Below are positions 2,637 to 17,156 of a stretch of 17,299 nt of DNA, in pieces. This DNA is from Candidatus Methylomirabilota bacterium. GTDB taxonomy: Bacteria > Methylomirabilota > Methylomirabilia > Methylomirabilales > Methylomirabilaceae. The notes under the pieces were generated by a model. That model had not been told where the DNA came from. It searched no databases and saw only the letters and a program-made list of their open reading frames with translations. Where the stretch lies: positions 1-17,299 of the forward strand of contig JAGWRQ010000021.1 in the NCBI GenBank assembly GCA_028869615.1, read 5' to 3'. The position numbers were made by a program, and so were the translations under genes. Numbering within the stretch: the first letter of the stretch is position 1; each line of letters starts with the position of its first letter.

Positions 2637-2637
2637 G

Positions 2638-3978: not shown

Positions 3979-3993
3979 GCGATGGGAGCGTCT

Positions 3994-4881
3994 ATGACGA
4001 ACATCAAGACCGTTGGAGTCGTCGGGGCCGGCATCATGGGGTCCGGCATCGCGCAGGTGGTCGCACAGGGAGGCTACGCCGTCGTCGTCAGGGAGGCGGA
4101 GCAGCGCTTGTTGGATAAGGGGAAGCAGGCGATCGACAGCGGGCTGCAACGAGCGGTTGACAAGGGACGGATGACCGTCGAGGAAAAGACGGCGCTCCTT
4201 GGGCGGATCAGGTGGACCCTTGCCCTGGAAGACCTGAAAGGGGCCGATCTGATCATCGAGGCGATCACCGAGGATCTGCCGCTGAAGCAGGATCTATTCC
4301 GCGCCCTGGATCGCCTCTGCCCGCCGAGCACGATCTTTGTCAGTAACACCTCATCCATCAGCATCATGTCGCTGGCTTCTGCAACCGGGCGGGCCGACCG
4401 GTTCGCCGGCCTGCATTTTTTCAATCCCGTTCCGCTGATGAAACTGGTGGAGGTAGTCCGGAGCATTCGCACCAGTGCGGAGACCTTTCGGACCGTCTCC
4501 GATTTCGCCGTATCACTGGGAAAGGAGCCGGTTGCGGCAAAGGATCACTGCGGTTTTATCGTGAACCGCCTGTTGGTGCCGTACCTGTTGGATGCTATTC
4601 GAGCGTTAGAGGCGGGCGTCGCGTCTGTGACAGATATCGACAAGGCGATGAGGCTGGGCTGCAACCATCCGATGGGTCCCTTGGAGCTCGCCGATTTCGT
4701 CGGCCTTGACACGACATACGCCATCGCGAACATCATGTTCGAGGAGTACCGGGAAGCGCGCTACGCACCACCCCAACTTTTGAAAAAGATGGTCATCGCC
4801 GGCTATCATGGGCGGAAGTCTGGCCGGGGTTTCTACGACTACTCCGGCCCGACGCCGCACGCGACAAACCTGGGCCTGTGA
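3994..4881 (+). CDS. hbd: 3-hydroxybutyryl-CoA dehydrogenase family protein
   Basis: The 295-residue product is predicted to oxidise or reduce short-chain 3-hydroxyacyl-CoA with NAD(P). It has a Rossmann motif VGVVGAGIMGSG (7-18), the SNTSS segment near 117-121, and the catalytic HFFNP motif (His141). KDHCGFIVNR follows, and then the C-terminal helical domain with HPMGPLELADFVGLD. Length and motif order match single-domain Hbd/PaaH enzymes. The ATG at 3994 is favoured because GGGAG lies five bases before it; an in-frame ATG at 3982 has a poorer site. It lies 15 bases after rarA. The true substrate chain length cannot be read from sequence. Confidence 0.9.
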   Translation: MTNIKTVGVVGAGIMGSGIAQVVAQGGYAVVVREAEQRLLDKGKQAIDSGLQRAVDKGRMTVEEKTALLGRIRWTLALEDLKGADLIIEAITEDLPLKQDLFRALDRLCPPSTIFVSNTSSISIMSLASATGRADRFAGLHFFNPVPLMKLVEVVRSIRTSAETFRTVSDFAVSLGKEPVAAKDHCGFIVNRLLVPYLLDAIRALEAGVASVTDIDKAMRLGCNHPMGPLELADFVGLDTTYAIANIMFEEYREARYAPPQLLKKMVIAGYHGRKSGRGFYDYSGPTPHATNLGL

Positions 4882-4936
4882 TGCTGCTTCAACGCCTGAG
4901 CAAACGACCTGGCATGGAAACAGATTGGGGTAATCC

Positions 4937-5842
4937 ATGACGAGAAGCCGTTCCAGAATCTTATCCGTCATCTCACTTCAGCTCGGACTGATTCTTCTGC
5001 CAGGCCTGGCTTGGGCCGATCTTGTTGGACAGCAGAGTACCTGTGGCACCGAGCCGAAAAAGACCGTCGTCGCCCTGACCGGGCAGGAGAAAGTTGTCGA
5101 CCTTGCCGAGGGCGTGAAAACGGAAGCCTGGACGTTTAACGGTATCACCCCCGGACCGACAATCGAAGTCTGCGAGGGTGACACGGTGAGGATTGTACTG
5201 AAAAATGAAGGTAAGGTGGCGCACGGGCTTGATAGCCATGCCTTTAGAATCAATGCAACCAAGTTTGGACCGGTAGAACCAGGGGAAACGCTTGTCTATG
5301 AGAAAAAAGTGAATGCGCCCGGGGTGTTCATGTACCACTGCGCAAATGGCCCTCTGACAGACCAACACATCAAGATGGGCATGTATGGTGTCATGATTGT
5401 CTATCCTCGCGGCCAAAAGCTAAGGCCGGCTCGCGAGATTGTAGTCAGTGAGAACGGCGTCTATGGAGAGCCCGACCCAAAAGGCATGATTGCTCCGTCT
5501 ACAGAGCGAATGGATGAGAATCGAGCATACTTTGTTCTCTACAATGGGACACTTAAACACGAGCCCCTGGAAATGAAGGCGGGCGACTTGCTTCGCGTGT
5601 ATTTTGTGAACGCTGGCCCTTACACCTCCACGTTTCACGTGATTGGTGCCATCCTTGATCGAGCCTATGAAGGTGGCAATCCACGCAACCTAGTATACGA
5701 TGTTCAGGCCTACGCGGTTCCAGCCGGCTCGGGTGGCATGTTTGAGGTCACGATGCCCGAGCCGGGAAACTATCTGATAGTCGACCATGATAAGCTCTCG
5801 CAGCTTCCCAATGGGTTAGGTATTCCCATTGTAGCCCGGTAA
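4937..5842 (+). CDS. Exported NirK-like two-domain copper protein (AniA-like)
   Basis: A signal peptide (hydrophobic core then GLAWA, cleavage before Asp28) leads into two cupredoxin domains. Domain 1 has His96, Asp99 and His101 in AHGLDSHAF, then YHC (His134-Cys135), His144 and Met149. In copper nitrite reductases these positions give the type 1 site (His96, Cys135, His144, Met149) and two type 2 ligands (His101, His134), with Asp99 as the catalytic acid. Domain 2 has FHVIG (His234, the second catalytic residue in AniA/NirK) and VDHDKLS (His284, third type 2 ligand). All key positions of nitrite-to-NO reductases are therefore present. Cys36 and Cys79 may form a disulfide. The mature part is short and lacks the longer C-terminal arm of classical NirK. 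It lies 55 bases after hbd, upstream of the nxr operon. Nitrite reductase is the best guess; another multicopper oxidase role is possible. Confidence 0.75.
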   Translation: MTRSRSRILSVISLQLGLILLPGLAWADLVGQQSTCGTEPKKTVVALTGQEKVVDLAEGVKTEAWTFNGITPGPTIEVCEGDTVRIVLKNEGKVAHGLDSHAFRINATKFGPVEPGETLVYEKKVNAPGVFMYHCANGPLTDQHIKMGMYGVMIVYPRGQKLRPAREIVVSENGVYGEPDPKGMIAPSTERMDENRAYFVLYNGTLKHEPLEMKAGDLLRVYFVNAGPYTSTFHVIGAILDRAYEGGNPRNLVYDVQAYAVPAGSGGMFEVTMPEPGNYLIVDHDKLSQLPNGLGIPIVAR

Positions 5843-6180
5843 GCATCAGCGAGATCGGCTCAGAATCGCGAGTAGCTCGATTGGGCGAACTTACCTCTCA
5901 CCGGGCTCACTCCAGCGTGTTCTCGTGCAAACTCAGGCTGGCATGAAAGACCTATGGGCCGACGACAGCGACGACGCAATTTGAGCTTGACGGCGTAGGG
6001 GCAAGAGCGGTATAAAGTCACAGCGATTAACGAATCAAGTGAATAAACGTATATGCCTGAACAAGACTAGGCTAGGCTAACTTCTACTGGACGATCGCGG
6101 CGTGATACCGTCATGGGACGAGCCGTTGCTGGCCTGAAGCCGGTATACCTCATATGCAGAGTCGCCAGGTGTAGTGAGCG
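5843..6180. other. Intergenic region before the nxr operon
   Basis: This 338-base stretch has no credible gene on either strand. It is less GC-rich than its flanks around 6010-6090 and carries a candidate promoter at 5987-6016. That leaves an unusually long leader of about 155 bases before the first gene of the operon. I see no convincing terminator for the upstream copper-protein gene and no obvious NNR/FNR-type palindrome. Confidence 0.6.
5987..6016 (+). promoter_or_regulatory. Candidate sigma70-type promoter for the nxr operon
   Basis: TTGACG (5987-5992) and TATAAA (6011-6016) each match the consensus at five of six positions, with an 18-base spacer. It is the best promoter-like pair in the intergenic region and points into the operon starting at 6181. 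Confidence 0.5.
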
Positions 6181-7122
6181 ATGCAGATCCGGCTCGATCC
6201 ATCCCTGACCGAGACGGTTACTCTCCAAGAGATCACCCGCCGACAGGAGATGGGAGACCTCGCCCCCTTCCGTGAATATCATCTCGCCGCCGATCCTCTC
6301 TATCATTGCCATCCGGATACGCGGGAAGCGGGCTTCCGGAGGCTCCATGCGCTGTTCTTCGAGCGGCTAGGGTATGCCCAAGGTGTGCAGCAAGCGGTAC
6401 ACGAGTTCCCGGAGATCGAGGCCCGCGCATCCGAGGTCGTTGTGGCTCTCGCCGCCACCTCTGTGGAGGAGGGAGCCGACCTGGCGCGTGAGCGCGTCAA
6501 CGGGAACGGTCGTGCAACCACGCGCGTCGGCATACGATTGCAGGCCGATCGGTTCCTCGACCTGTCCACCTTGCAGCGCTATCTCCGGCATGAACTCTGC
6601 CATGTCACCGATCTGCTCAACCCTGATTTTGGGTACGAAGGCGACACTGTGGAGATCATCATCCGGAATCGGTATCGGCTCCTCTGGTGTCTTTCGATCG
6701 ACGCAAGGCTGGAGACCGCAGGCAGGGAGCCACTGGCCGACAAGCCGATGCACTGGCGACAGTTCGACGCGCAGTACGGCAAGTTCGCAACGGCGGTAAG
6801 GCAGGCGATCTTCGAGCGGCTCTGGCGGCCCGAGCCGGTCTCCCATACGTCACTGCTCCTGATGGCGAGGAGCAGTGAAGCGTTGCTTCGTCTTGCCGGT
6901 GATGCAGGCCAAAAAGGGGAGGGGGGCCCGCGCCCCACACTATTGCCTGGTTCACCATGTCCGCTCTGCCGCTTCCCCAGCTACCACTTTGTTGAACATC
7001 GCAGTCTCTTGGATTCAACGCTCACTGCCGCGATCCAGCAGGACTTCCCTGACTGGACCAGCGATAAGGGCCTCTGTGCGCGCTGCCTGGAAGCCTATGC
7101 CCTTCGAACCGGCCGTTGGTGA
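6181..7122 (+). CDS. HExxH metalloprotease-like protein with C-terminal zinc ribbon
   Basis: I do not recognise a named family. The 313-residue product has no signal peptide or membrane segment, so it should be cytoplasmic. A zincin-type motif HELCH (137-141) sits in a helix (LQRYLRHELCHVTDLL). Candidate third ligands are Asp174 or Glu178 in SIDARLE, about 35 residues downstream. The C-terminus carries two Cys pairs, CPLC (260-263) and CARC (299-302), that would form a zinc ribbon. It ends 36 bases before nxrA on the same strand, with no promoter between, so co-expression is likely. A role in maturation or quality control of the NXR subunits is an inference from position only. Proteolytic activity is unproven because the third ligand is uncertain. 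Confidence 0.65.
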   Translation: MQIRLDPSLTETVTLQEITRRQEMGDLAPFREYHLAADPLYHCHPDTREAGFRRLHALFFERLGYAQGVQQAVHEFPEIEARASEVVVALAATSVEEGADLARERVNGNGRATTRVGIRLQADRFLDLSTLQRYLRHELCHVTDLLNPDFGYEGDTVEIIIRNRYRLLWCLSIDARLETAGREPLADKPMHWRQFDAQYGKFATAVRQAIFERLWRPEPVSHTSLLLMARSSEALLRLAGDAGQKGEGGPRPTLLPGSPCPLCRFPSYHFVEHRSLLDSTLTAAIQQDFPDWTSDKGLCARCLEAYALRTGRW

Positions 7123-7158
7123 GCACCTCAGGAGAGGCAAGGGAGAAGGAGGTGTGAC

Positions 7159-10100
7159 ATGGCACTGACACGGCGACAGTTCCTGCAAGCGACGACTGCG
7201 GCGGGGGTCTTCACCCTCGCATCCTCACGACTTGGCCTCAGCATGTTGCAGCCGACGGTGGAGGTTGATAATCCGCTGGAGCGCTACCCGGATCGGGACT
7301 GGGAACGGATCTATCGCGACCAGTACCACTACGACCGCACCTTCACCTACGTCTGCTCGCCCAACGACACCCACGCCTGCCGACTGCGCGCCTTCGTCAA
7401 GAACGGCATCCTCCTGCGGGTCGAACAGAACTACGACGTAGAGCGCTACAGCGATCTGTATGGGAATAAGGCAACAGTCGCCTGGCATCCGCGGGGCTGC
7501 CCCAAGGGCTACACGATGGTCCGTCGGGTCTATGGCGCCTACCGCCTCAAGTACCCGATCGTGCGGAAGGGCTGGATAGAGTGGGCGGACGACGGCTTCC
7601 CCGAACTCGATGAGACGAACCTCAGCAAGTACAAGTTTGATTCGCGCGGCGAAGACGAGTTCGTGAAGGTGTCCTGGGATGCGGCGTTCTTCTACATCGC
7701 CAGGGGAATGATCCATATCGCCAAGAAATACAGCGGCGATGAGGGGATGAGAAGGCTCAAGGCACAGGGGTACGCGCCGGAGATGATCGAGGCGATGCAC
7801 GGAGCCGGCACCCGGACCATGAAGATACGTGGCGGCATGGGGCTGCTGGGGGTGATCGGCAAGTACGGCGCCTATCGCCTCGCCAATACCCTGGCGTTGC
7901 TTGACGCCGATATCCGGGGAGTGAGCGCTGAGAAGGCGTTAGGCGGCCGCCTCTGGTCCAACTACACCTGGCATGGCGACCAGGCCCCGGGCCATCCATT
8001 CGTCCACGGCCTGCAGGCGAGTGACGTTGACTTCAATGACCTGCGATTTTCAAAGCTCCACATTGGGTGCGGGAAGAATCTTATCGAAAACAAGATGCCG
8101 GAGTCTCACTTCTTCAATGAGCTGATCGAGCGGGGCGCGAAGATCGTCGTCATCACGCCGGAGTACAGTCCGCCGGCGACCAAGTCGGACTACTGGATCC
8201 CGATCCGACCCCAGACCGACGCCGCCCTCTTCCTAGGCCTGACCAAAATCCTCATTGACGAAAAGCAATACGATGAACGGTTCGTCAAGCAGTTCACGGA
8301 CCTGCCGCTACTGGTTCGGACCGATACCCTCAAGCGGCTGAAGCCGACCGACATCTTCCCCGGCTACAAGCACCAGGATATCACGCAGGGGGCGAGCGTC
8401 CAGGTCCATGGCCTGACAGCGGAGCAGCGTGAGCGAGTGGGCGACTTCGTAGTCTGGGATCGTACGACGAACGGCCCAAAGGCCATCACCCGTGACGACG
8501 TCGGGAAGCATCTGGCCGAGAAAGGGATCGATCCGACCCTGGAGGGGCGCTATGCCCTCAAGACGGTGGACGGCAAAGAGGTGGAGGTCTTCACGCTGTT
8601 CGAGCTGTACAAGATCCATCTCAAGGATTACGACCTCGATACCGTCCACGACATCACCCACGCGCCAAAAGAGCTGATCAGGCGCCTCGCCCACGACATC
8701 GCGACGATCAAACCTGCGGCGATCCACATCGGCGAAGGGATCAACCACTGGTTCCACGCCACTGAGGCCAACCGCGCCTTCTACCTCCCGCTGATGCTGA
8801 CCGGTAACCTCGGCATGCCGGGGGCCGGGTGTCACACGTGGTCCGGCAACTACAAGGCCGCCAACTTCCAGGGCTCCACCTGGAGCGGGCCGGGCTTCAA
8901 GGGCTGGGTGGCGGAGGATCCGTTTCGTCCCAATCTTGATCCTACGGCGCACGGCAAGACGATCCATGCCCACGCCTACACCAAGGACGAGGAGCCGGCC
9001 TATTGGAACCATGGGGATACGCCCCTGATCGTCAACACCCCCAAGTACGGGCGGAAGCTCTTCACCGGTCAGACGCACATGCCGACCCCGACGAAGGTGA
9101 TGTACTTTACCAACGTCAACCTGATCAACAATGCCAAGCATGTCTACGAGATGCTGAAGCACGTGAACCCTAAGGTAGAGCTGATCGTCTCGACGGACAT
9201 CGAGATGACCGCCAGCATCGAGTATGCCGACATCGCGCTGCCGGCGAACTCCTGGCCGGAATTTGAGACCCTCGAGGTCACCTCTTCGTGCAGCAACCCC
9301 TTCCTGCAGATCTGGAAGGGCGGGATCAAGCCGGTCTACGGCACCAAGGACGATGTCATGATCCTGTCCGGGATCGCGGCCAAGCTGGGTGAACTGCTTC
9401 ACGACGCCCGATTCGCCGACTACTGGAAGTTCGCTCTGGAAGGGCGGCCGGAGATCTACATCCAGCGCCTCCTGGACTCCTCGACCACCACGGCCGGCTA
9501 CAAGCTGGACGAGATCATAGCCGGCAAATTCGGCGAGCCCGGCGCGGCCCTGATGCTCTACAGGAGCTACCCTCGCATCCCGTTCTGGGAGCAGGTGCAT
9601 GACCATGTTCCCTTCTTCACGCCGACGGGGCGGCTCCAGGCCTACAACGACGAGCCGGAGGTGATCGAATACGGCGAAAACTTCATCGTCCACCGCGAGG
9701 GGCCGGAGGCCACGCCGCACCTGCCGAACGTCATCGTGTCGAGCAACCCATACATCCGCCCGGATGACTATGGCATCCCCCTCGACGCCATGGGGTGGGA
9801 CGAGCGGACGGTCCGTAACGTGAAGATGCCGTGGCACGAGGTCAAGGCGACCAGCAACCTGCTCTGGGCGAAGGGCTACCAGTTCTATCTGCTGACGCCG
9901 AAGACGCGCCACAAGGTCCACTCCTCGTGGAGCGTGTGCGACTGGAACATTATCTGGGACTCGAACTTCGGCGACCCGTATCGTATGGACAAGCGGATGC
10001 CCGGCGTGGGCGAGCATCAACTGCATATCAACCCGCAGGCCGCAAAAGACCTCGGGCTCAACGACGGCGACTATGCCTATGTGGACGCCAATCCGGCCGA

Positions 10101-10626
10101 CCGGCCGTACATCGGCTGGAAGCCTAGCGATCCCTTCTACAAAGTGAGCCGCCTCATGCTTCGAGTCAAGTTCAACCCCGCCTACCCGTATCACTGCGTG
10201 ATGATCAAGCATTCGGGGTTCATCGCGACCGAGAAGAGCGTGAAGGCGCACGAAACGCGTCCGGACGGACGGGCGCTCTCCGAGGACACCGGGTATCAAT
10301 CCAACTTCCGGTACGGATCCCAGCAAAGCTGCACCCGCGACTGGTCCATGCCGATGCACCAGCTCGATACGCTCTTTCACAAGCAGAAGACCTCCATGAG
10401 CTTCATCTTCGGGGGCGAGGCCGACAACCATGCCGTGAATACGGTGCCGAAGGAGACCCTGGTGAAGATCACCAAGGCCGAGGACGGCGGGCTGGGCGGC
10501 ACAGGTGTCTGGGAGCCGGCGCAGACCGGCTTCACGCCCGGCAATGAGCGCGAGACGATGAAGCGGTATCTGGAAGGTGGGTTCATCGAAGCACAGCGCA
10601 AAGGGGACGGCGATGCCGAACGATGA
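7159..10626 (+). CDS. nxrA: Nitrite oxidoreductase-type alpha subunit (type II DMSO reductase family molybdoenzyme)
   Basis: The 1155-residue protein is the catalytic bis-MGD subunit, interconverting nitrite and nitrate. A Tat signal (RRQFLQ at 5-10, then a hydrophobic stretch) places it in the periplasm. The FS0 cluster region reads Cys66-x3-Asp70-x3-Cys74-x39-Cys114, with Asp where many relatives have Cys. YTWHGD at 269-274 supplies Asp274 as the predicted Mo ligand of type II enzymes. The C-terminal third contains LTPKTRHKVHSSW, NFGDPYRMDKRMPGVGEHQ, HETRPDGRALSE and NTVPKETLVKITKAEDGG. I recognise these from Nitrospira/anammox-type NxrA rather than NarG. Length matches that group. The start has an AGAAGGAGG site. 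It overlaps the next gene by 14 bases. Nitrate reductase, chlorate reductase or another type II activity cannot be excluded. Confidence 0.88.
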   Translation: MALTRRQFLQATTAAGVFTLASSRLGLSMLQPTVEVDNPLERYPDRDWERIYRDQYHYDRTFTYVCSPNDTHACRLRAFVKNGILLRVEQNYDVERYSDLYGNKATVAWHPRGCPKGYTMVRRVYGAYRLKYPIVRKGWIEWADDGFPELDETNLSKYKFDSRGEDEFVKVSWDAAFFYIARGMIHIAKKYSGDEGMRRLKAQGYAPEMIEAMHGAGTRTMKIRGGMGLLGVIGKYGAYRLANTLALLDADIRGVSAEKALGGRLWSNYTWHGDQAPGHPFVHGLQASDVDFNDLRFSKLHIGCGKNLIENKMPESHFFNELIERGAKIVVITPEYSPPATKSDYWIPIRPQTDAALFLGLTKILIDEKQYDERFVKQFTDLPLLVRTDTLKRLKPTDIFPGYKHQDITQGASVQVHGLTAEQRERVGDFVVWDRTTNGPKAITRDDVGKHLAEKGIDPTLEGRYALKTVDGKEVEVFTLFELYKIHLKDYDLDTVHDITHAPKELIRRLAHDIATIKPAAIHIGEGINHWFHATEANRAFYLPLMLTGNLGMPGAGCHTWSGNYKAANFQGSTWSGPGFKGWVAEDPFRPNLDPTAHGKTIHAHAYTKDEEPAYWNHGDTPLIVNTPKYGRKLFTGQTHMPTPTKVMYFTNVNLINNAKHVYEMLKHVNPKVELIVSTDIEMTASIEYADIALPANSWPEFETLEVTSSCSNPFLQIWKGGIKPVYGTKDDVMILSGIAAKLGELLHDARFADYWKFALEGRPEIYIQRLLDSSTTTAGYKLDEIIAGKFGEPGAALMLYRSYPRIPFWEQVHDHVPFFTPTGRLQAYNDEPEVIEYGENFIVHREGPEATPHLPNVIVSSNPYIRPDDYGIPLDAMGWDERTVRNVKMPWHEVKATSNLLWAKGYQFYLLTPKTRHKVHSSWSVCDWNIIWDSNFGDPYRMDKRMPGVGEHQLHINPQAAKDLGLNDGDYAYVDANPADRPYIGWKPSDPFYKVSRLMLRVKFNPAYPYHCVMIKHSGFIATEKSVKAHETRPDGRALSEDTGYQSNFRYGSQQSCTRDWSMPMHQLDTLFHKQKTSMSFIFGGEADNHAVNTVPKETLVKITKAEDGGLGGTGVWEPAQTGFTPGNERETMKRYLEGGFIEAQRKGDGDAER

Positions 10627-10882
10627 GTTCGATCAGGACGACCCGATGGAGCTGGTAGGCGTGGCGCTGCCTGACGGCGATCCGGACGAGTTGGCTCGTT
10701 CGATCGTCGAGGAGTTCATCCGGATGGGCGTGAGCGATCAGGAGTTGCTGCACCTGTTCCACGATCCGTTCTACGCCGGCCCGTACGCTATCCGGCAGAG
10801 CCGAGGCGACGCCTATGTCCAGGACCTGATCGCGTATGGCCGTAAGCGCTGGGGTTATCCACGGTTCACAACAAAGGAGTGA
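10613..10882 (+). CDS. Conserved-looking small protein between nxrA and nxrB
   Basis: An 89-residue acidic protein of unknown function. Its start (ATG at 10613, preceded by GGGGACGG) lies inside the last codons of nxrA, and its stop TGA is five bases before the nxrB start, with the nxrB ribosome-binding site inside its last codons. Such packing suggests translational coupling and stoichiometric expression with the enzyme. Visible features are an Asp/Glu-rich N-terminus and a predicted helical middle (ELARSIVEEFIRMGVSDQE). HLFHDPFYAGPYAIRQSRG and a basic-aromatic end follow. There is no signal peptide, Cys motif or membrane segment. It could be an assembly factor or a small subunit carried with NxrA; both are inferences. 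Confidence 0.8.
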   Translation: MPNDEFDQDDPMELVGVALPDGDPDELARSIVEEFIRMGVSDQELLHLFHDPFYAGPYAIRQSRGDAYVQDLIAYGRKRWGYPRFTTKE

Positions 10883-10887
10883 CGGCA

Positions 10888-12168
10888 ATGGCCGACGTCT
10901 ATAACTGGCAGCTCGGACGCTCCATGGCGTACCCCTATGAGGAGAAGCACCCGCAGTGGCAGTTCGCGTTTGTCTTTAACATCAACCGATGCATCGGCTG
11001 TCAGACCTGCTCCATGGCCTGCAAATCGACCTGGACCTTCTCCAAAGGCCAGGAGTATATGTGGTGGAACAATGTGGAGACCAAGCCGTATGGCGGCTAT
11101 CCGCAATTCTGGGATGTGAGGCTTTTGAAGCTGCTGGATGAGGCCCACAAGGCGGCGGACCGCACGGCAAGCTGGGATGTCTCGCAACGCGATGGCGGTA
11201 AAAAGCCGTATGGCGTCTATGGCGGCGTGACGATCTTCGAGGCGGCGGTGAAACGGTACGGCCCGGAGGCCAACAAGCGGGCCATCGGCTACATCCCGAC
11301 CGATGCCGAGTGGCGCGCGCCCAACATCTACGAAGATACCTCTACCGGGTACGAGCCGGGCCCGATGGGGTTCAGCAAGGAGGGGGTAAGCCTCCCGGAG
11401 CACAAAAACTGGTTCTTCTACCTGCAGCGGCTCTGCAACCACTGCACCTATCCCGGCTGCCTCGCCGCCTGCCCGAGAAAGGCCATCTACAAGCGGCCCG
11501 AGGACGGCATCGTCTTGGTCGACCAGGCGCGCTGTCGCGGCTACCGGATGTGCGTGGAGGCCTGCCCGTACAAGAAGGCCATGTATCGCGCCACGACCAG
11601 GATCGCAGAGAAGTGCGTTGCCTGCTACCCCAGGATCGAGGGGAAGGACCCGCTCTCAGGCGGCGTGCCGATGGAGACCCGCTGCATGGCCGCCTGCGTC
11701 GGGAAGATCCGGTTGCAGGGGTTGGTGAAGATCAACGAGAACGGGAGCTGGGCCGAAGACCGTTCTCACCCCCTCTACTACCTGATCAGAGTGGAAAAGG
11801 TCGCGCTCCCACTCTACCCCCAGTTCGGCACCGAGCCCAACGGCTACTACATCCCGCCTCGGTGGGCCCCGCGTCCCTACCTGCGTCAGATGTTCGGGCC
11901 GGGCGTAGACGACGCGATCGCCAAATACATTGCCCCGTCACGCGAACTGCTCGCGGTCTTGCAGCTCTTTCGCACGACCCAGAAGATGATCTTCCGCTAT
12001 GCCATCGAGGAAGGACCGAAGGTCTTCGAGACGGAGATTAACGGCAAGCCCTGGGCGATGTACAACGATACCGTCATCGGGTTCGACAAGGCGGGCAAAG
12101 AGATCGTGCGGGTCACGGTGGAAGAGCCGGTCTATGAGCGGCCCAAGGAGCGACCGAACTCGATCTAG
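10888..12168 (+). CDS. nxrB: Nitrite oxidoreductase-type beta subunit (iron-sulfur electron-transfer protein)
   Basis: The 426-residue subunit carries electrons between NxrA and the gamma subunit through four clusters. Cys motifs are C35-x2-C38-x2-C41-x3-C45; C183-x2-C186-x4-C191-x3-C195; C216-x2-Tyr219-x2-C222-x3-C226; and C243-x2-C246 with C266-x3-C270. Tyr219 in place of a Cys predicts one [3Fe-4S] cluster, as with Trp in NarH. Phrases such as YMWWNNVETKPYGGYPQF, ACPRKAIYKRPEDGIVL and GPKVFETEINGK are those I associate with Nitrospira-type NxrB. There is no signal peptide, so export by hitchhiking on the Tat signal of NxrA is expected. The ATG at 10888 is chosen over a GTG at 10879 because AAAGGAG sits eight bases before it. 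Confidence 0.9.
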   Translation: MADVYNWQLGRSMAYPYEEKHPQWQFAFVFNINRCIGCQTCSMACKSTWTFSKGQEYMWWNNVETKPYGGYPQFWDVRLLKLLDEAHKAADRTASWDVSQRDGGKKPYGVYGGVTIFEAAVKRYGPEANKRAIGYIPTDAEWRAPNIYEDTSTGYEPGPMGFSKEGVSLPEHKNWFFYLQRLCNHCTYPGCLAACPRKAIYKRPEDGIVLVDQARCRGYRMCVEACPYKKAMYRATTRIAEKCVACYPRIEGKDPLSGGVPMETRCMAACVGKIRLQGLVKINENGSWAEDRSHPLYYLIRVEKVALPLYPQFGTEPNGYYIPPRWAPRPYLRQMFGPGVDDAIAKYIAPSRELLAVLQLFRTTQKMIFRYAIEEGPKVFETEINGKPWAMYNDTVIGFDKAGKEIVRVTVEEPVYERPKERPNSI

Positions 12169-12181
12169 GGCGGAGAGGCGG

Positions 12182-12967
12182 ATGGAACAGGAGCGCAGCA
12201 GCGTAGCGCAGAACGACGCGATAGACGCAGCCTTGGACCGGAGCGACCTGTACCGGTGGCTCTCCCTGGCGTTCCGGTACCCGGACGCCGATCCGGCAGC
12301 GCACCTGCAGACCTCTGCGCTCATCGCGCTGGAGACGATGCTGGAGCGGATTGCGAGTGAAGAGCGCGACGTCCTGCGCCCTGTCCTGACCTCCCTGCGA
12401 GCACGCTGCGCCGACCGTGATCTGGCGGCGCTGCAGTCGGATCACCGACGGGTGTTCGGCCACATCGAATCGTCTCTCTGCCCGCCGTATGAGACCCGCT
12501 ATGACATCCGTCACCTCTTCCAGCAGACACAGCAGCTCGCGGACATCGCCGGCTTTTACCGGGCCTTCGGCCTGGAGCTGTCGGATGACGCCAACGAGCG
12601 GCCGGACTATCTGCCAATCGAGCTGGAGTTCCTCCATTTCCTCTGCTTCAAGGAGGCGTACGCCCTCGAACACCACGGACCTGAGCAGGTCAAGGTCGTT
12701 CGGGACGCCGAGGCCGCATTCCTGCGGGATCATCTGCTCCGCTGGGCGCCCTCCTTTGCCGGACGACTGAAGGATCAGGCTGGGGACGGATTCTACGAAC
12801 AGCTTGCGACGTTGCTGCTGGTCTTCCTGAGGGCGGAGGCCGCACGGTGGAAGTGCGATCCGGCGGAGGATGCGCCCCTCCATCCCCTCACTCTGCTTCC
12901 GGAGGGCTGTAACTTTTCCTGCGGGCTGGACGGACAAAGCGTAGACGAACTGATCAGCGAACGATAG
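12182..12967 (+). CDS. TorD/NarJ-family chaperone for the molybdoenzyme
   Basis: Cytoplasmic all-helical chaperone expected to bind the Tat signal of NxrA and hold the protein back until the Mo cofactor is inserted. In the 261-residue product the family features are DLYRWLSLAFRYPD (22-35), VFGHIESSLCPPYETRYDI (91-109) and DYLPIELEFLHFLCFKEA (142-159). These are typical of the dedicated chaperones of type II DMSO reductase enzymes (the DdhD/ClrD/NarJ group). The start at 12182 is preceded by GGAGAGG and lies 13 bases after nxrB; the reading frame extends upstream into nxrB but has no good start there. It ends ten bases before the cytochrome gene. Confidence 0.85.
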   Translation: MEQERSSVAQNDAIDAALDRSDLYRWLSLAFRYPDADPAAHLQTSALIALETMLERIASEERDVLRPVLTSLRARCADRDLAALQSDHRRVFGHIESSLCPPYETRYDIRHLFQQTQQLADIAGFYRAFGLELSDDANERPDYLPIELEFLHFLCFKEAYALEHHGPEQVKVVRDAEAAFLRDHLLRWAPSFAGRLKDQAGDGFYEQLATLLLVFLRAEAARWKCDPAEDAPLHPLTLLPEGCNFSCGLDGQSVDELISER

Positions 12968-12977
12968 GGAGAGACCA

Positions 12978-14579
12978 ATGACAAGGACACGATCTGCGAG
13001 GATAGCCTTCGCAGTCTTGGTAGCTCTCGTCGGCGGCATAAGCGCCTTCGAGTCGCTTCGGCGCCAGGCCGCGGCGCAGAATCCGATCACGGGCGATGCC
13101 GCGCAGGGCAAGGCCCTGTACGAGAAGAAATGCGCCGTCTGCCATGGCGCCGAGGGGATGGGAAACGGCAAGGCGGAGTTTGTCCTCTTCCCCAAACCCC
13201 GCAACTTCACCAAGGGGATCTTCAAGATCCGCTCCACCACAACACTGCCCACCGACACCGACCTGTTCCGGACGATCACGCGGGGAATCCCAGGCACCGC
13301 CATGCCATCGTGGGGCACGCTCACCGAAACCCAGCGATGGAACCTTGTGGCCTTCGTCAAGAGCCTTTCGTCGCGGTTCACTGACGAGCAGGCCGGTCCG
13401 CCGGTCGCGATCCCGAAGCCGCCGCCACCAAGCCCGACGTTGCTGTCCCTTGGGAAGTACTATTACACGGAGGCCGGATGTTTCGACTGTCACGGGATGA
13501 GCGGCAGGGGGGACGGCCCTGCCGCCGAGACGCTGAAAGATGAGTGGGGCTACCCTATCGTTCCCTACGACTTCACCATCCATGGACGTATGAAAGCGGG
13601 ATCGAGGATTCAGGATCTCTACCGGACGCTTACCGCTGGGATCGGTGGAACCCCCATGCCCTCGTATGCCGACTCCCTCGACGAGCAACAGCGGTGGGGT
13701 CTGAGCTACTATGTGCTCTCCCTCGCCAACGAACCGGCGCCCGGACCGGCCGCTCAAGAGGTCACGACCATCCGCTCCGGTTTTGTCGCAGGGACGATAC
13801 CGACTGACCCTTTGGCCGCCCTCTGGCAGCAGGCGAAGCTGGTCGCGATCCAGACGCGCACCCTCTGGCTGCGCGTGAAGGAGACTGAGTCGATCCGCGT
13901 CGCGTCGTTTCATAACGGGCATCAGATCGGTATCCTGCTCGAATGGGACGACCCGATCATGAATCACGAGACACTTCGTCATGAGGACTTCCGCGATGCC
14001 GCCGCTGTCCAGTTTCCGACTCAAGAGACAGAGCCCTCCCATGTCATGGGAGAGCACGCAGGCCCGGTCAACATCTGGCACTGGAAGGCCGATTGGGAAG
14101 CCGATCTGGCTCGCTACCGCGATGTCCAGAACCGCTACCCGGGTATGGGCAATGATTTCTACCCCTTCTTAGAGCGCAGTCCGGTCTTACTGGGAGCCCC
14201 GGAGGGTGACCTGAAGGAGGTGCAGATGCGCACGTCGACCCACAACCCGACCTATCTGACCGGATGGGGGGCGGGCAATCTCTTCTCTCTTCCCGCGCGG
14301 CTGACATCGGTGGAGAATCTCAATGCCACCGGACTCGGGACCCTCACCTCGCAGCCGGCTGAACATCAGACCGTCAGGGGCCACGGGCTCTGGGCCGCCG
14401 GCAAGTGGCGCGTGGTGATGGTCCGTGCGCTTCAAACCGAGAACGACCGGGACACGCAGTTGACGCCCGGTAGCACGGTGCCGGTGGCGTTCGCCGTCTG
14501 GGACGGCGCCCAAGGCGACCGAGATGGCCGGAAGGCGGTCACCGTCTGGCAGTGGCTCGCCCTGCAGCCCAAGCCCTGA
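12978..14579 (+). CDS. nxrC: Exported diheme cytochrome c fused to an ethylbenzene-dehydrogenase-type heme b domain (NXR gamma subunit)
   Basis: The 533-residue protein starts with a hydrophobic segment (about 9-23) and RRQAAAQNP, a signal peptide or N-terminal anchor. The first cytochrome c domain has CAVCH (52-56) with Met109 in GTAMPSWG as likely sixth ligand. The second has CFDCH (168-172) with Met227 in GGTPMPSY. From about residue 285 to the end, the pattern matches the heme b gamma subunits of type II enzymes (EbdC/DdhC/ClrC-like). It includes IGILLEWDDP, AAAVQFP, HVMGE with Met357 as candidate heme ligand, NIWHWKADWE and GLWAAGKWRVVMVR. It is the last gene of the operon and would link NxrAB to soluble periplasmic electron carriers. 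The symbol nxrC reflects role and position; family-level homology is firmer than the name. Confidence 0.82.
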   Translation: MTRTRSARIAFAVLVALVGGISAFESLRRQAAAQNPITGDAAQGKALYEKKCAVCHGAEGMGNGKAEFVLFPKPRNFTKGIFKIRSTTTLPTDTDLFRTITRGIPGTAMPSWGTLTETQRWNLVAFVKSLSSRFTDEQAGPPVAIPKPPPPSPTLLSLGKYYYTEAGCFDCHGMSGRGDGPAAETLKDEWGYPIVPYDFTIHGRMKAGSRIQDLYRTLTAGIGGTPMPSYADSLDEQQRWGLSYYVLSLANEPAPGPAAQEVTTIRSGFVAGTIPTDPLAALWQQAKLVAIQTRTLWLRVKETESIRVASFHNGHQIGILLEWDDPIMNHETLRHEDFRDAAAVQFPTQETEPSHVMGEHAGPVNIWHWKADWEADLARYRDVQNRYPGMGNDFYPFLERSPVLLGAPEGDLKEVQMRTSTHNPTYLTGWGAGNLFSLPARLTSVENLNATGLGTLTSQPAEHQTVRGHGLWAAGKWRVVMVRALQTENDRDTQLTPGSTVPVAFAVWDGAQGDRDGRKAVTVWQWLALQPKP

Positions 14580-14605
14580 TGTGCCTCTTCCAGCCACTGC
14601 ACGTC

Positions 14606-14676: not shown

Positions 14677-14752
14677 GGGCAGGTAGCTCAGTCGGTAGAG
14701 CACAGGACTGAAAATCCTGGTGTCGGCGGTTCGATTCCGCCCCTGCCCACCA
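14677..14752 (+). tRNA. tRNA-Phe (anticodon GAA)
   Basis: The 76-base cloverleaf is complete. The acceptor stem is GGGCAGG/CCTGCCC with A discriminator and encoded CCA. The D stem is GCTC/GAGC. The anticodon stem CAGGA/TCCTG encloses loop CTGAAAA, with GAA at 14710-14712. The T arm is GGCGG-TTCGATT-CCGCC. It stands alone after the nxr operon and marks the boundary to less GC-rich DNA. Confidence 0.97.
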
Positions 14753-14818
14753 TATTCTTCCCTAGGCTTATCCCTTTGACTCGGGTTTCTTTAAATGTTG
14801 CTGATTCTGGTACAGATA

Positions 14819-14848
14819 TTGCTCAATACCTAGACAATCCGATATAAT
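14819..14848 (+). promoter_or_regulatory. Candidate promoter for the small gene cluster after the tRNA
   Basis: A perfect TATAAT lies at 14843-14848, with TTGCTC (14819-14824, three of six matches) 18 bases upstream, in AT-rich DNA. It points toward the gene at 15013, giving a leader of roughly 155 bases. Confidence 0.4.
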
Positions 14849-15012
14849 TCACAATATGAGGTTGTACAGAGTAAGATTTCCCTTGACTCTGACAGACTGG
14901 ATTAGGACACTACAACCCTCCAGAAGTGGCGTTTTAGATCTAAGCCTACAAAGTTTCAGAAGCTATTAACGAAGTTGCTCCAACAAAAGCATCCTCTTGC
15001 GAGGTAAGAACC

Positions 15013-15312
15013 ATGGCGGAACCATTGGATGTGTATGCGGATCAGTTCCAATTGAGTACGGCCATTTACGGTGCGACGCTTAACTTTCTGGTGTCGAGCC
15101 CAACTCCGCCCGCACCCGGAACAGTGCCTCCGATTGAGCGCTTAGCTACCGTACGCATGAGCCTTGAGCACCTGAAAGTAATGGCATTCATTCTGCGCCG
15201 GCAAGTCCTGCAGCATGAGCAACAAACTGAAACCACTATCCAAATTGCGGCTCAGGCATTAAATGGACTACAAATTGGTCTGGAGGACTGGGAGAGATTC
15301 TGGAGGGAGTAG
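15013..15312 (+). CDS. Small protein of unknown function, possibly DUF3467-like
   Basis: A 99-residue soluble protein with a GAGGTAAG ribosome-binding stretch seven bases before its ATG. It has an N-terminal part that reads as strand-like (DQFQLSTAIYGATLNFLVSS) and then a helix, VRMSLEHLKVMAFILRRQVL. An 'RMSxEHxK...LxxQ' pattern at the end of a short strand-rich domain is what I recall of DUF3467-type proteins, but the match is from memory and weak. It precedes the next gene by 11 bases, with that gene's Shine-Dalgarno overlapping its stop, so they form an operon. Base composition is lower in GC than the nxr region, which hints at transfer. Confidence 0.7.
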   Translation: MAEPLDVYADQFQLSTAIYGATLNFLVSSPTPPAPGTVPPIERLATVRMSLEHLKVMAFILRRQVLQHEQQTETTIQIAAQALNGLQIGLEDWERFWRE

Positions 15313-15323
15313 GAGGATTTGAG

Positions 15324-15719
15324 ATGGTCTGCACACTTAAGACCGTAAATACTGATGTCTCAAAGGAGAGTTCTTACGGAAAGCTTTTGCGACCCAATGA
15401 TTTCTTGTTGCCGCCCTCTATTCCCAATTGGACGGACGACCAGGTTGTCACGTTTCCTCAGAAAACCCCTATTCCAGATAGTGGCCTGTCACTCAGATAT
15501 ACATTAATTGCTGAGATAAGGGCTACCCGTGATGGGTTTGTATTGCGATCTGGCGATCTGGATGAAGATGCCTTCGGCCTTACTTATGAAGAGGCCTATC
15601 TGGGTTTTCTTACTTCGCTTCGGGATCGCTATTACTCTTTGGTGAGGAGAGAAGCATCGCTCTCGCGTCAAGATCATTCGGTTCTTGAAAAGCTGCGCAG
15701 GTTATTAGCGAAAGGGTAA
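15324..15719 (+). CDS. Unknown protein, possible antitoxin-like partner of the next gene
   Basis: A 131-residue protein started by a strong AGGAGG seven bases before ATG. The N-terminal half is polar and proline-rich (DFLLPPSIPNW). A strand-like core follows (LRYTLIAEIRATRDGFVL), then a helical end, EEAYLGFLTSLRDRYYSLV and VLEKLRRLLAKG. I do not recognise a named family. A small strand-helix core followed by a helical tail, next to a short basic protein, is the layout of many antitoxin genes, but this is inference from context. The gap to the next gene is 29 bases. Confidence 0.65.
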   Translation: MVCTLKTVNTDVSKESSYGKLLRPNDFLLPPSIPNWTDDQVVTFPQKTPIPDSGLSLRYTLIAEIRATRDGFVLRSGDLDEDAFGLTYEEAYLGFLTSLRDRYYSLVRREASLSRQDHSVLEKLRRLLAKG

Positions 15720-15748
15720 GATCGCTCCTGATTGCGGTCCTTCAGTTC

Positions 15749-16033
15749 ATGGCCTTGACGGTTCGTGATGTGGAACGTGGTTTTTTGCGAAAGCTCGGTG
15801 CCGAAAAAGATGAAGAAAGAGATCACGTTTACTTCTATCTGACCCACGAGGGCAGCCGGTACACAGTTGGGAAACTGTCGCATTCGTGGAGGGGAGATCT
15901 TAACGACACACAGGTCGGCATGCTTGCTCACAAGCTCCGTCTTCAGAAGCGTGAGTTTGAGAGGTTCATTGAGTGTAAGTTAGGTAAAGCTCAGGTGATT
16001 GAGATTTGGGAAAGACGCCGAAATGAGACCTAG
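15749..16033 (+). CDS. Small basic protein, faintly HicA-like (possible toxin)
   Basis: A 94-residue basic protein. The segment DHVYFYLTHEGSRYTVGKLSHSW (written here in part: HVYFYLTHEGSRY) has the 'H-x-F/Y-strand-G' look of the small double-stranded-RNA-binding fold of HicA toxins. It is followed by SHSWRGDLND and a helix MLAHKLRLQKREFERF similar to the C-terminal helix of such toxins. The ATG at 15749 has no clear Shine-Dalgarno, so expression may depend on coupling to the upstream gene. With that gene it could form a second toxin-antitoxin pair in the window. The similarity is pattern-level only. Confidence 0.6.
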   Translation: MALTVRDVERGFLRKLGAEKDEERDHVYFYLTHEGSRYTVGKLSHSWRGDLNDTQVGMLAHKLRLQKREFERFIECKLGKAQVIEIWERRRNET

Positions 16034-16377
16034 CAAGTCACGAAGATTTGGTGGGTTTTTGGAAATTGGACAGGATAAAGCTAGCATCAGCATTACCGCA
16101 GAATAAAACCATTTCCCCGCTGTTCTAGTTTCCGCAGGTTCCGTTCAGATCATCTTTACTTGGTGCAACGTCGCAAGCTTAATGGTGATGAATGTGACCG
16201 AAAACCCCAAACTACTTGCCGGATCAGTTGGCTTGGGCACGCTACCAAGCGATCCTTTCAAGGTACCTGAGTCAAAGCGCTAAGCCTATTCTACCCTTCT
16301 AAGTCCTCCAAATGAACCAACTCCAATAGTAGTCGTACAAAGCTCACCGCGCATTCGCGGATTCATCAAGTCCCGAC
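16034..16377. other. Non-coding stretch before the hicBA pair
   Basis: About 344 bases with no gene I can support. The only open frames are very short (for example 16182-16283, 33 codons) and lack ribosome-binding sites. Composition is AT-richer than the nxr region. I see no transposase remnant, inverted repeat pair or copy of the tRNA end here. Confidence 0.55.
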
Positions 16378-16617
16378 TCATGTTTCTTCATAGGCTTTGA
16401 GGAATTCGTCTCTGGCGATACTCGCTTGAACGCAGATGGTGCGGAGCGTCGAGCCTCTGATGTCGGAGTGATTAGGTATGGTGAGGGACGTCTGCGTCCC
16501 ATCCGGGTTGTCCCGCATCATCGCCAGATGCGGTCCCTCTCGGATCAGCCGGAAGCCCAGCCGCTCCAATGGCTTAATGACCCTTACTTTCGGGACATCT
16601 ACCGGAAACGTGGGCAT
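16378..16617 (-). CDS. hicA: HicA-family toxin of a type II toxin-antitoxin system
   Basis: HicA toxins are small mRNA interferases of the dsRNA-binding-fold type. The 79-residue product shows the family pattern: an N-terminal helix (VIKPLERLGF), then RLIREGPHLAMMR with the conserved His30. After these come TSLTIPNHSDIRGSTLRTI and a final helix, ARDEFLKAYEE. The ATG shares one base with the stop of the upstream hicB (TGATG), so translation is coupled. The antitoxin-first order is one of the two known arrangements. Length is normal for the family, and the catalytic His is intact, so the toxin is probably functional. Confidence 0.88.
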   Translation of the reverse strand: MPTFPVDVPKVRVIKPLERLGFRLIREGPHLAMMRDNPDGTQTSLTIPNHSDIRGSTLRTICVQASIARDEFLKAYEET

Positions 16618-16841
16618 CAGACCGTGACTGTGGCTTCCGCAATGAAGGCGTCCAGGATGGGGGACTCGGCTTCCAGCGCCTCCGGTCCAAAGGTTTCGAT
16701 GTGGAAGCGGATGGCAGATCTTACATCTGCCAAGGCATCCTCGTAGGTCTCGCCTTCGCCGATCACCACCCCTTTGAGCCCCATGGGATAGGCTACGTAG
16801 CCCTCCGGGTGTTTCTCCACGATCACTTTGAAGTACCGCAT
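16617..16841 (-). CDS. hicB: HicB-family antitoxin
   Basis: HicB neutralises HicA. From the chosen start the product is 74 residues, MRYFKVIVEKHPEGYVAYP leading to LKGVVIGEGETYEDALADVRSAI, the partial RNase H-like fold of HicB antitoxins. There is no C-terminal helix-turn-helix or ribbon-helix-helix domain after ILDAFIAEA, so this is the short form and autorepression would need another mechanism. Three tandem ATGs (16847, 16844, 16841) follow AAGAAGGA; the third has the best spacing, though the second is possible. The frame extends upstream to 16922 without homology-like sequence. Confidence 0.85.
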   Translation of the reverse strand: MRYFKVIVEKHPEGYVAYPMGLKGVVIGEGETYEDALADVRSAIRFHIETFGPEALEAESPILDAFIAEATVTV

Positions 16842-17156
16842 CATCATTCCTTCTTCGGCTAAGAGGAGAGCCGTTTCAGATCTTTTTCGACGGATCATAC
16901 TCCTTCGCGCTCCCAGGCGCAAGCTGACCCGTCTGATTCACGCCAAGCGATGAATTGATCCCTGTCGCCTCAGGTGAATCGACACATCCGCCCCGCGCAG
17001 CCGTGGTCTTTACTCTGATAACCCACGATACCACTTGACGCTCCCAGGCGAATCTCTTACTGTTAGCTCACGGCTGATCGATTCGTGGTGGCGATGTCCG
17101 GCTTCCTAACGTATTCGGGGGGGCTGGTGCGGCAAAGTCGGAAGGGGACAGAGAAG
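16842..17156. other. Intergenic region between hicB and purM
   Basis: This 315-base divergent region should hold the hicBA promoter and the purM promoter. A 12-base direct repeat (CGCTCCCAGGCG at 16908-16919 and 17039-17050) flanks its centre. No further gene is supported. Confidence 0.5.
17035..17063 (+). promoter_or_regulatory. Weak candidate promoter for purM
   Basis: TTGACG (17035-17040) is followed after 17 bases by TACTGT (17058-17063). The -35 is good and the -10 matches only three of six positions. It lies about 95 bases before the ATG. Confidence 0.35.

What the first reader, a model, noticed from the sequence alone, without database searches (positions are those of the whole stretch)
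6181..14579. Complete periplasmic NXR-type operon without a membrane subunit
Six tightly packed genes encode a Tat-exported NxrA, NxrB, a TorD-type chaperone, a triheme gamma subunit and two unknown proteins. Gene gaps are 36, -14, 5, 13 and 9-10 bases, and no NarI-like gene is present. The NxrA and NxrB sequences look like the Nitrospira/anammox group, usually tied to nitrite oxidation. If the host is an NC10 bacterium, a nitrite-reducing lineage, the physiological direction of the enzyme is an open and interesting question.
Basis: partly seen in the sequence, partly recalled or inferred. Interest (0 to 1): 0.8.

Follow-up and report, generated by a model that had tools for sequence, protein, structure and literature searches.

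The report
Nitrite-oxidizing enzyme operon in a methane-eater
This is a complete gene set for a known nitrite-to-nitrate enzyme, lying as one block in the chromosome of a Methylomirabilis-type bacterium whose genome also carries genes for eating methane with nitrite, which makes the direction in which the enzyme runs there a real and testable question.

Summary
Confirmed: six co-directed genes at 6181-14579 encode a Tat-exported NxrA, NxrB, a TorD/NarJ-type chaperone, a triheme NxrC and two proteins without a Pfam family; gaps are as stated. Trees, active-site residues and the match to the solved Kuenenia enzyme place NxrA and NxrB in the periplasmic NXR clade of anammox and Nitrospinota. No NarI was found in the host genome; soluble NxrC is usual in this clade. 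The host is in the genus of Ca. Methylomirabilis and its bin also holds pmoAB, nirS, a nod fragment at a contig end, qNOR, cytochrome c oxidase and RuBisCO. Of nine same-genus genomes comparable at this site, seven are empty, one has only nirK, one other DNA. NXR of this clade is in 5 of 15 genomes of the genus, 3 of the 10 with pmoA. Periplasmic-type NXR in the NC10 phylum was already in print (CSP1-5, 2018). The 89-aa gene is an unnamed companion of this NXR clade: 65 of 80 loci, mostly between nxrA and nxrB, and none of 45 relatives lacking such an NxrA. Most likely a reversible, cytochrome c-linked NXR that oxidizes nitrite; direction unproven. New member of a known kind.

The parts
6181..7122 (+). 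313-aa NXR-cluster protein: HExxHxxD motif (residues 137-144) in a zincin-like domain and a CxxC...CxxC zinc ribbon (260/263, 299/302); no signal peptide seen; proposed cytoplasmic NXR maturation factor
7159..10626 (+). nxrA: Tat-exported molybdopterin catalytic subunit of a periplasmic NXR
   Evidence: 1954.5 bits to Kuenenia NXR-A 7b04_B; Mo ligand Asp274, Asn69, Cys66 and Asp70 conserved; trees
7171..7188 (+). Tat motif RRQFLQ of NxrA
   Evidence: read from the sequence
10613..10882 (+). 89-aa NXR companion protein, overlaps nxrA by 14 bases; three-helix model; unnamed family
   Evidence: 65 of 80 NXR loci, between nxrA and nxrB in 61; 13 of 15 relatives with a clade NxrA, 0 of 45 others; pLDDT 83.8
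10888..12168 (+). nxrB: iron-sulfur electron-transfer subunit, 15 cysteines
   Evidence: 635.8 bits to Kuenenia NXR-B 7b04_A; tree; Cys count
12182..12967 (+). TorD/NarJ-type Mo-enzyme chaperone
   Evidence: PF02613 3.2e-24; TIGR03482 103 bits, below its cut-off of 152.3
12978..14579 (+). nxrC: N-terminal hydrophobic stretch (signal peptide), two cytochrome c domains, then a heme b (EB_dh) domain
   Evidence: PF00034, PF13442, PF09459; N-part to Kuenenia cytochrome 6h5l 199 bits, C-part to Kuenenia NXR-C 7b04_C 123.3 bits
13131..13145 (+). first c-heme motif CAVCH of NxrC
13479..13493 (+). second c-heme motif CFDCH of NxrC
5970..14590 (.). stretch absent from the same site of genome G004, where nirK and its downstream bases run directly into the tRNA-Phe leader: the NXR block
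   Evidence: window 5969 and 14591 both align to L120 position 11498
4937..5842 (+). nirK-type copper nitrite reductase upstream of the operon (context, 338 bases before it)
   Evidence: TIGR02376 149.3 bits, below its cut-off of 296.3; 153.5 bits to 4kns with the copper and catalytic positions present in the alignment, positions recalled; 93% identical gene in G004
14677..14752 (+). tRNA-Phe (gaa), right flank of the block

Best explanation
The operon encodes a complete periplasmic nitrite oxidoreductase of the anammox/Nitrospinota type. NxrA is loaded with Mo cofactor with the help of the TorD-like chaperone and exported by Tat with NxrB carried along; NxrC is exported on its own and receives its hemes in the periplasm; the 313-aa and 89-aa proteins most likely help assembly in the cytoplasm. 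Electrons pass between the Mo centre, five iron-sulfur clusters, heme b and two c hemes to soluble cytochrome c, not to quinone. The block sits as one piece at a tRNA-Phe site of a Ca. Methylomirabilis-type bacterium whose genome also has pMMO, NirS, Nod-type and cytochrome c oxidase genes. I think it most often runs as a nitrite oxidase, giving high-potential electrons to cytochrome c and from there to cytochrome c oxidase or to the nitrite reductases. Shown: gene content, family, residues, host genus, empty sites. Inferred: export order, electron partners, roles of the two small-family proteins, direction.
For: Family and residues; trees. Kuenenia NXR works both ways and has the same ligands (PMC8387239, passages); a diheme cytochrome of its nxr cluster, Kustd1711, sits near +350 mV (PMC11791136, passages; I did not establish that it is the 6h5l protein that NxrC resembles). 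No NarI in the genome, so no evident quinone link. Host: RarA, on the same contig, 88-92% identical to ten same-genus genomes (nine over 454 residues or more, G002 over 336), 80-86% in G001, G006, G011 and G012, at most 72% in the other genera searched; pmoA and pmoB, NirS beside a second D1-type and a radical SAM gene, N-terminal fragment 78-83% identical to the Nod-type proteins of five same-genus genomes that carry the His-to-Asn change described for Nod (PMC3413370, passages), qNOR, COX1 and COX2, RuBisCO. Site: seven of nine comparable same-genus genomes have hbd within 161 bases of the tRNA-Phe leader, G004 has nirK only, G003 has other DNA.
Against: No expression, activity or redox data. 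The Kuenenia enzyme is reversible, so sequence cannot fix the direction. NxrA and NxrB identity to G006 (85, 89%) is about as high as that of core genes (pyrF 72, rarA 82, hbd 80%), so an old NXR in the genus, later moved and lost elsewhere, is as possible as recent transfer. The genome is in 278 contigs with 7.85% estimated contamination; pmo, nir and nod lie on other contigs than the operon, and the nod fragment ends before the diagnostic residues.
Confidence: 0.6

Rival explanations
1. The same complex runs mainly as a cytochrome c-linked nitrate reductase: electrons from periplasmic methanol oxidation reach it by cytochrome c and make nitrite from nitrate, which the nitrite-dependent methane pathway then uses. 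The host would then be able to use nitrate.
For: Kuenenia NXR reduces nitrate too (PMC8387239, passages). The host lineage needs nitrite, and no NarI was found in the host. Methanol dehydrogenase gives electrons to cytochrome c (recalled; not searched for in this genome).
Against: The heme ligation and the c-type hemes point to a high-potential pool, at which nitrate reduction is close to equilibrium and conserves no energy (inference). Nap and other nitrate reductases of the host were not searched for.
Confidence: 0.25
2. It is a type II enzyme for another substrate (such as perchlorate, chlorate, selenate or a hydrocarbon) that only resembles NXR.
For: All curated NCBIfam models that match NxrA, NxrB, the chaperone and NxrC score below their cut-offs, in the rows shown.
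Against: About nine times more bits to Kuenenia NXR-A (1954.5) than to perchlorate reductase (208) or ethylbenzene dehydrogenase (160.5); trees; NXR-type cluster residues.
Confidence: 0.05
3. The contig or bin is an artefact: the NXR block of another organism was joined to a Methylomirabilis contig, or the pMMO/Nod contigs come from another strain.
For: 278 contigs, 7.85% contamination.
Against: Both flanks of the block are syntenic with same-genus genomes and meet at one site, so a chimera needs two joins at the two ends of one empty site; the nearest NXR relatives are same-genus genomes G001 and G006. The second half of the statement is not excluded.
Confidence: 0.05
4. On origin only (it does not compete with the function proposed): the block is an ancestral trait of the genus, kept here and in G001/G006 and lost elsewhere, rather than a later gain at this site.
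For: NXR identity to G006 is no higher than expected from core genes; the G001/G006 rows are the sisters of the window row (100).
Against: The site is empty in seven of nine comparable genomes; G002 and G004 carry another NXR lineage in the NxrA trees.
Confidence: 0.3

Closest known systems
Kuenenia stuttgartiensis NXR-ABC (PDB 7b04)
   Same: NxrA, NxrB and the heme b domain of NxrC match; Mo ligand Asp, Asn, Cys and Asp of the first cluster and Met/Lys heme ligands conserved
   Different: NxrC is fused to two cytochrome c domains; nxrA, the 89-aa gene and nxrB are adjacent; no 89-aa gene was found in the 12 loci of Brocadiaceae and like Planctomycetota held (stretches, not whole genomes); NXR-T was not searched for
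NXR of NC10 bacterium CSP1-5 (XU15_C0015, L006)
   Same: same phylum, six homologous genes, NxrA 74%, NxrB 78%; reported in 2018 as clustering with Nitrospina/Nitrospira/anammox NxrA (PMC6094997, passages)
   Different: CSP1-5 is described there as unable to oxidize methane and lacking nirS; the present host bin has pmoAB, nirS and a nod fragment
NXR of Methylomirabilota groundwater genomes JACQQF01 (L004) and JACQEV01 (L059)
   Same: nearest relatives, NxrA 85-86%; the same six genes in L004
   Different: by coordinates these are G006 and G001, which show no pmoA and no qNOR/Nod match; L004 has no nirK, rarA or hbd match in the stretch held
Nitrospinota NXR
   Same: same clade by the rows L042 and L047; a soluble NxrC and a TorD-like chaperone are described for N. 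gracilis (PMC3578206, passages)
   Different: N. gracilis itself is not among the rows; its operon is nxrABC with the chaperone beside another nxrC, as the passages say
Membrane-bound Nar/Nxr of Ca. M. oxyfera (Damo_0774-0779)
   Same: same genus, related reaction
   Different: NarGHI type, its NarG grouped with Nitrobacter/Nitrococcus NxrA in print (PMC6094997); a NarG row from G005, which I take for M. oxyfera, falls outside the NXR clade (L153)

Membership tests
Periplasmic NXR (anammox/Nitrospina/Nitrospira type) | NxrA groups with anammox and Nitrospinota NxrA and not with NarG or other type II enzymes | tested here: met
   56 rows; 44 rows; no Nitrospira row; quick trees, SH-aLRT only
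Periplasmic NXR (anammox/Nitrospina/Nitrospira type) | Mo ligand Asp, substrate Asn, first Fe-S cluster with Cys and Asp | tested here: met
   Asp274, Asn69, Cys66, Asp70; the three NarG rows have His and Cys at 66 and 70
Periplasmic NXR (anammox/Nitrospina/Nitrospira type) | Tat signal on NxrA | tested here: met
   RRQFLQ at residues 5-10, by eye; export itself not tested
Periplasmic NXR (anammox/Nitrospina/Nitrospira type) | NxrB groups with NXR beta subunits | tested here: met
   (outgroup of 3 long rows)
Periplasmic NXR (anammox/Nitrospina/Nitrospira type) | soluble heme b gamma subunit with Met/Lys ligands | tested here: met
   one hydrophobic stretch only, at the N-terminus
Periplasmic NXR (anammox/Nitrospina/Nitrospira type) | oxidizes nitrite to nitrate | not testable with these tools
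   needs biochemistry
Membrane-bound nitrate reductase NarGHI | NarI quinol-oxidizing membrane subunit | tested here: not met
   no PF02665 match in the genome
Copper nitrite reductase NirK (neighbour gene) | type 1 and type 2 copper ligands and catalytic Asp/His | tested here: met
   read by eye from the alignments to 4kns and 3wia, ligand identities recalled; TIGR02376 score below its cut-off
Nitrite-dependent methanotroph (Ca. Methylomirabilis type) | pmo and nirS genes in the genome | tested here: met
   pmoA, pmoB, nirS; on contigs other than the window's
Nitrite-dependent methanotroph (Ca. Methylomirabilis type) | nod gene with the His-to-Asn change | tested here: inconclusive
   only an N-terminal fragment at a contig end, 78-83% identical to five same-genus proteins that have the change
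Zincin metallopeptidase (313-aa protein) | zincin fold with HExxH | tested here: inconclusive

The most novel reading that the evidence does not exclude
In this bacterium NXR and the nitrite reductases may be wired together through cytochrome c, so that nitrite is both donor and acceptor: 3 nitrite give 1 nitrate and 2 NO, and Nod turns the NO into N2 and O2. Oxygen for methane oxidation would then be made without spending methane-derived electrons (net 3 NO2- + 2 H+ -> NO3- + N2 + O2 + H2O). The nirK gene 338 bases upstream of the operon fits this, but no such gene was found beside the NXR genes of the same-genus genomes G002, G004 and G006.
Probability: 0.12. Interest if true: 0.85.

Novelty: new member of a known kind. 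Interest (0 to 1): 0.48.

Why it matters
Nitrite-dependent methanotrophs compete with nitrite oxidizers and anammox for nitrite. If some of them carry and use a periplasmic NXR, they could send nitrite back to nitrate, or live on nitrate or oxygen in addition, which changes how methane and nitrogen budgets of groundwater are read from genes. It also warns that nxrA in a metagenome need not mean a classical nitrite oxidizer. The 89-aa gene is a specific marker of this NXR clade outside anammox, as far as examined here, and a target for assembly studies.

Tried and rejected

Rows dropped and cuts: trees used 56 and 44 NxrA rows chosen by me out of 102 and 38 NxrB rows chosen likewise; repeated loci of the same genomes were left out. 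The 80 loci are the best 80 of 374 relatives and lean to close relatives. 'Clade NxrA' among relatives is my cut of 55% identity in the list, which was cut off at its weak end; G024, counted as lacking it, has a 60-residue piece at 51% at a contig end. The 89-aa profile was built partly from the loci then counted. Ten papers were read as passages only (PMC6094997, PMC9562985, PMC8387239, PMC11791136, PMC12758564, PMC3578206, PMC11264602, PMC8906906, PMC3413370, PMC10406867); all others were seen as search listings.
Full report
What is there. Six genes on the + strand at 6181-14579 are packed with gaps of 36, -14, 5, 13 and 10 bases. They encode a 313-aa protein, NxrA (1155 aa, Tat motif RRQFLQ), an 89-aa protein, NxrB (from the ATG at 10888), a TorD/NarJ-type chaperone (261 aa) and NxrC (533 aa). 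Pfam gives molybdopterin oxidoreductase, 4Fe-4S, nitrate reductase delta, and cytochrome c plus EB_dh domains for four of them, and nothing at E 0.001 for the 313-aa and 89-aa proteins. A nirK-type gene ends 338 bases upstream and tRNA-Phe starts 97 bases downstream.

Identity. Against solved structures NxrA scores 1954.5 bits with Kuenenia NXR-A, 208 with perchlorate reductase, 160.5 with ethylbenzene dehydrogenase and at most 136.8 with NarG. NxrB scores 635.8 bits with Kuenenia NXR-B. The C-terminal part of NxrC matches Kuenenia NXR-C (123.3 bits) and its N-terminal part a Kuenenia cytochrome, 6h5l (199 bits) (the organism of 6h5l is recalled). By the residue numbers given for Kuenenia (PMC8387239, passages), the Mo ligand Asp, the substrate Asn, and Cys and Asp at the first cluster are present (Asp274, Asn69, Cys66, Asp70), as are the heme b ligands (Met357, Lys519) and two CxxCH motifs. 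In the 85 NXR-clade rows compared there, Asp274, Asn69 and Cys66 are kept in 84 and gapped in 1; position 70 is Asp in 76, Cys in 8, gapped in 1. The three NarG rows have His and Cys at positions 66 and 70. In trees of 56 and 44 chosen rows the window NxrA groups with L004 and L059 (100) inside an NXR clade with anammox, Nitrospinota ARS89 and ODZ_NOB7a rows (100); NxrB agrees (99). The program flags long outgroup branches, and the root split itself is weak (54). A second NXR-like nxrAB of the same genome, on contig C69, is 40-42% identical and forms its own clade with other relatives.

Host. The window is contig C154 of a genome of 278 contigs, 2.06 Mb, 99.79% complete and 7.85% contaminated. 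RarA, on the same contig, is 88-92% identical to ten same-genus genomes, 80-86% in G001, G006, G011 and G012, and at most 72% in the other genera of the order that were searched. One same-genus genome, G005, is closed and 2,752,854 bases long, which I recall as the size of Ca. M. oxyfera. The host genome has pmoA and pmoB, NirS beside a second D1-type gene and a radical SAM gene, an N-terminal Nod-type fragment at a contig end, 78-83% identical to proteins of five same-genus genomes which carry the His-to-Asn change described for Nod (PMC3413370, passages), qNOR, COX1 and COX2 of a cytochrome oxidase, RuBisCO and no NarI. So the bin has the gene set of a nitrite-dependent methanotroph, with the reservation that these genes lie on other contigs and the nod fragment ends before the diagnostic residues.

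How it got there. Same-genus genomes were compared at this site. In seven of the nine with both flanks on the stretch held (G005, G007, G008, G009, G010, G013, G014) hbd and the tRNA-Phe leader are 161 bases or less apart. G004 has nirK (93% identical) and then the tRNA-Phe leader, with window bases 5969 and 14591 meeting at one base. G003 has about 5.4 kb of other DNA; I listed its ORFs only. G002 and G006 could not be compared, and G001, G011 and G012 were not fetched there. So DNA at the site differs in several ways in the genus, and the NXR block 5970-14590 is a unit relative to G004. No direct repeat of 10 bases or more was found at its ends. NXR identity to G006 is like that of core genes, so timing and source are open. 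Over the genus, NXR-clade NxrA is in 5 of 15 genomes: G000, G001, G006 (85-86%) and G002, G004 (59-61%, another branch in the NxrA trees). pmoA is in 10 of 15; 3 of those 10 have NXR (G000, G002, G004), and G001 and G006 have NXR without pmoA found; G010, G011 and G012 showed neither, at 80-83% completeness.

The two small-family genes. Of the 80 NXR loci held, 65 have the 89-aa gene; it lies between nxrA and nxrB in 61, just before nxrA in 3, and in 1 no nxrB was found in the locus. The 15 without it are 12 loci of Brocadiaceae or of Planctomycetota with like gene content, L008, L019 and L059, whose contig ends inside nxrA. Among 60 relatives, 15 have an NxrA of this clade by my cut of 55% identity, fragments included, and 13 of these have the 89-aa gene; the two without, G019 and G041, show NxrA fragments only. 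None of the 45 others has it, including three with only the second NXR-like type, G008, G013 and G042. It is a conserved, unnamed companion; the model has three helices (pLDDT 83.8) and no structural match. The 313-aa gene is in 49 of 80 loci, just before nxrA in 24, next to the chaperone in 24 and elsewhere in 1. It has invariant Glu and Asp of an HExxHxxD motif and four invariant cysteines in 33 aligned rows, a confident model and weak zincin matches. It is probably the 'putative zinc finger' of the gene set shared by Kuenenia, Nitrospira and Nitrospina (PMC3578206, passages); I did not compare the sequences. I take both to act in the cytoplasm in assembly, since I see no signal peptide and no hydrophobic stretch; this is inference.

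How it works and direction. Export by Tat, maturation by the chaperone, and electron flow Mo - Fe-S - heme b - hemes c follow from the families. With no NarI and two c hemes on NxrC, cytochrome c is the likely partner. I favour nitrite oxidation (0.6) over nitrate reduction (0.25), but the Kuenenia enzyme does both and nothing here measures activity.

What is known. Versantvoort et al. 2018 (PMC6094997, passages) reported for NC10 CSP1-5 an NxrA clustering with Nitrospina, Nitrospira and anammox and said that function was untested; for Ca. M. oxyfera and M. lanthanidiphila they reported a membrane-bound Nar/Nxr near Nitrobacter and Nitrococcus, and for M. lanthanidiphila a further Nar. PMC8906906 (passages) lists a membrane-bound Nxr for M. 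tolerans too. PMC9562985 (passages) mentions nxrAB, expressed, in a Ca. Methylomirabilis groundwater genome with pmoABC (nzgw240), without typing it in the passages seen, and NXR homologues in many phyla; it may be such a case already in print. PMC11264602 (passages) describes a non-methanotrophic clade of the genus with NAR/NXR. PMC10406867 (passages) lists nxrAB in a Methylomirabilales methylotroph. PMC12758564 (passages) confirms that anammox NXR-A groups with Nitrospirota and Nitrospinota. I found no explicit statement of a periplasmic-type NXR in a pmo-bearing Methylomirabilis in the searches, which cover only open-licence PMC papers, most seen as listings.

Noticed in passing
14677-14752 and 14811-16370: The tRNA-Phe site is variable in the genus: besides the NXR block, about 14812-16371 has no match in the G005 stretch, is lower in G+C (0.493 at 15001-16000) and holds three small ORFs without a Pfam family over cut-off; G004 has two tRNA-Phe copies 957 bases apart.
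   Followed up: partly
L111 (own contig C69), nxrA-like gene at 2097-5555 -: A second NXR-like gene set (nxrA2, nxrB2, start of a heme b-type gene) with a Tat-like motif and the same four active-site residues but only 40-42% identical; relatives in G004, G008, G013 and others.
   Followed up: partly
4937-5842: NirK-type gene, found with 93% identity only in G004 among 15 same-genus genomes (other matches 30-35%); NirS is present as well.
   Followed up: partly
L128 (G002): NxrC of G002 is 70% identical to the window's while its NxrA is 61% and its 313-aa protein 38%, and the NxrA and NxrB trees place G002/G004 differently, which hints at exchange of parts of the cluster.
   Followed up: no
L123 (G003), about 3344-8795: About 5.4 kb of other DNA sits between hbd and tRNA-Phe in G003, at the same site as the NXR block; ORFs listed, one of them sigma factor-like by eye.
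   Followed up: partly
16617-16922, - strand: Small ORF that looks HicB-like by eye but has no Pfam match over cut-off.
   Followed up: partly
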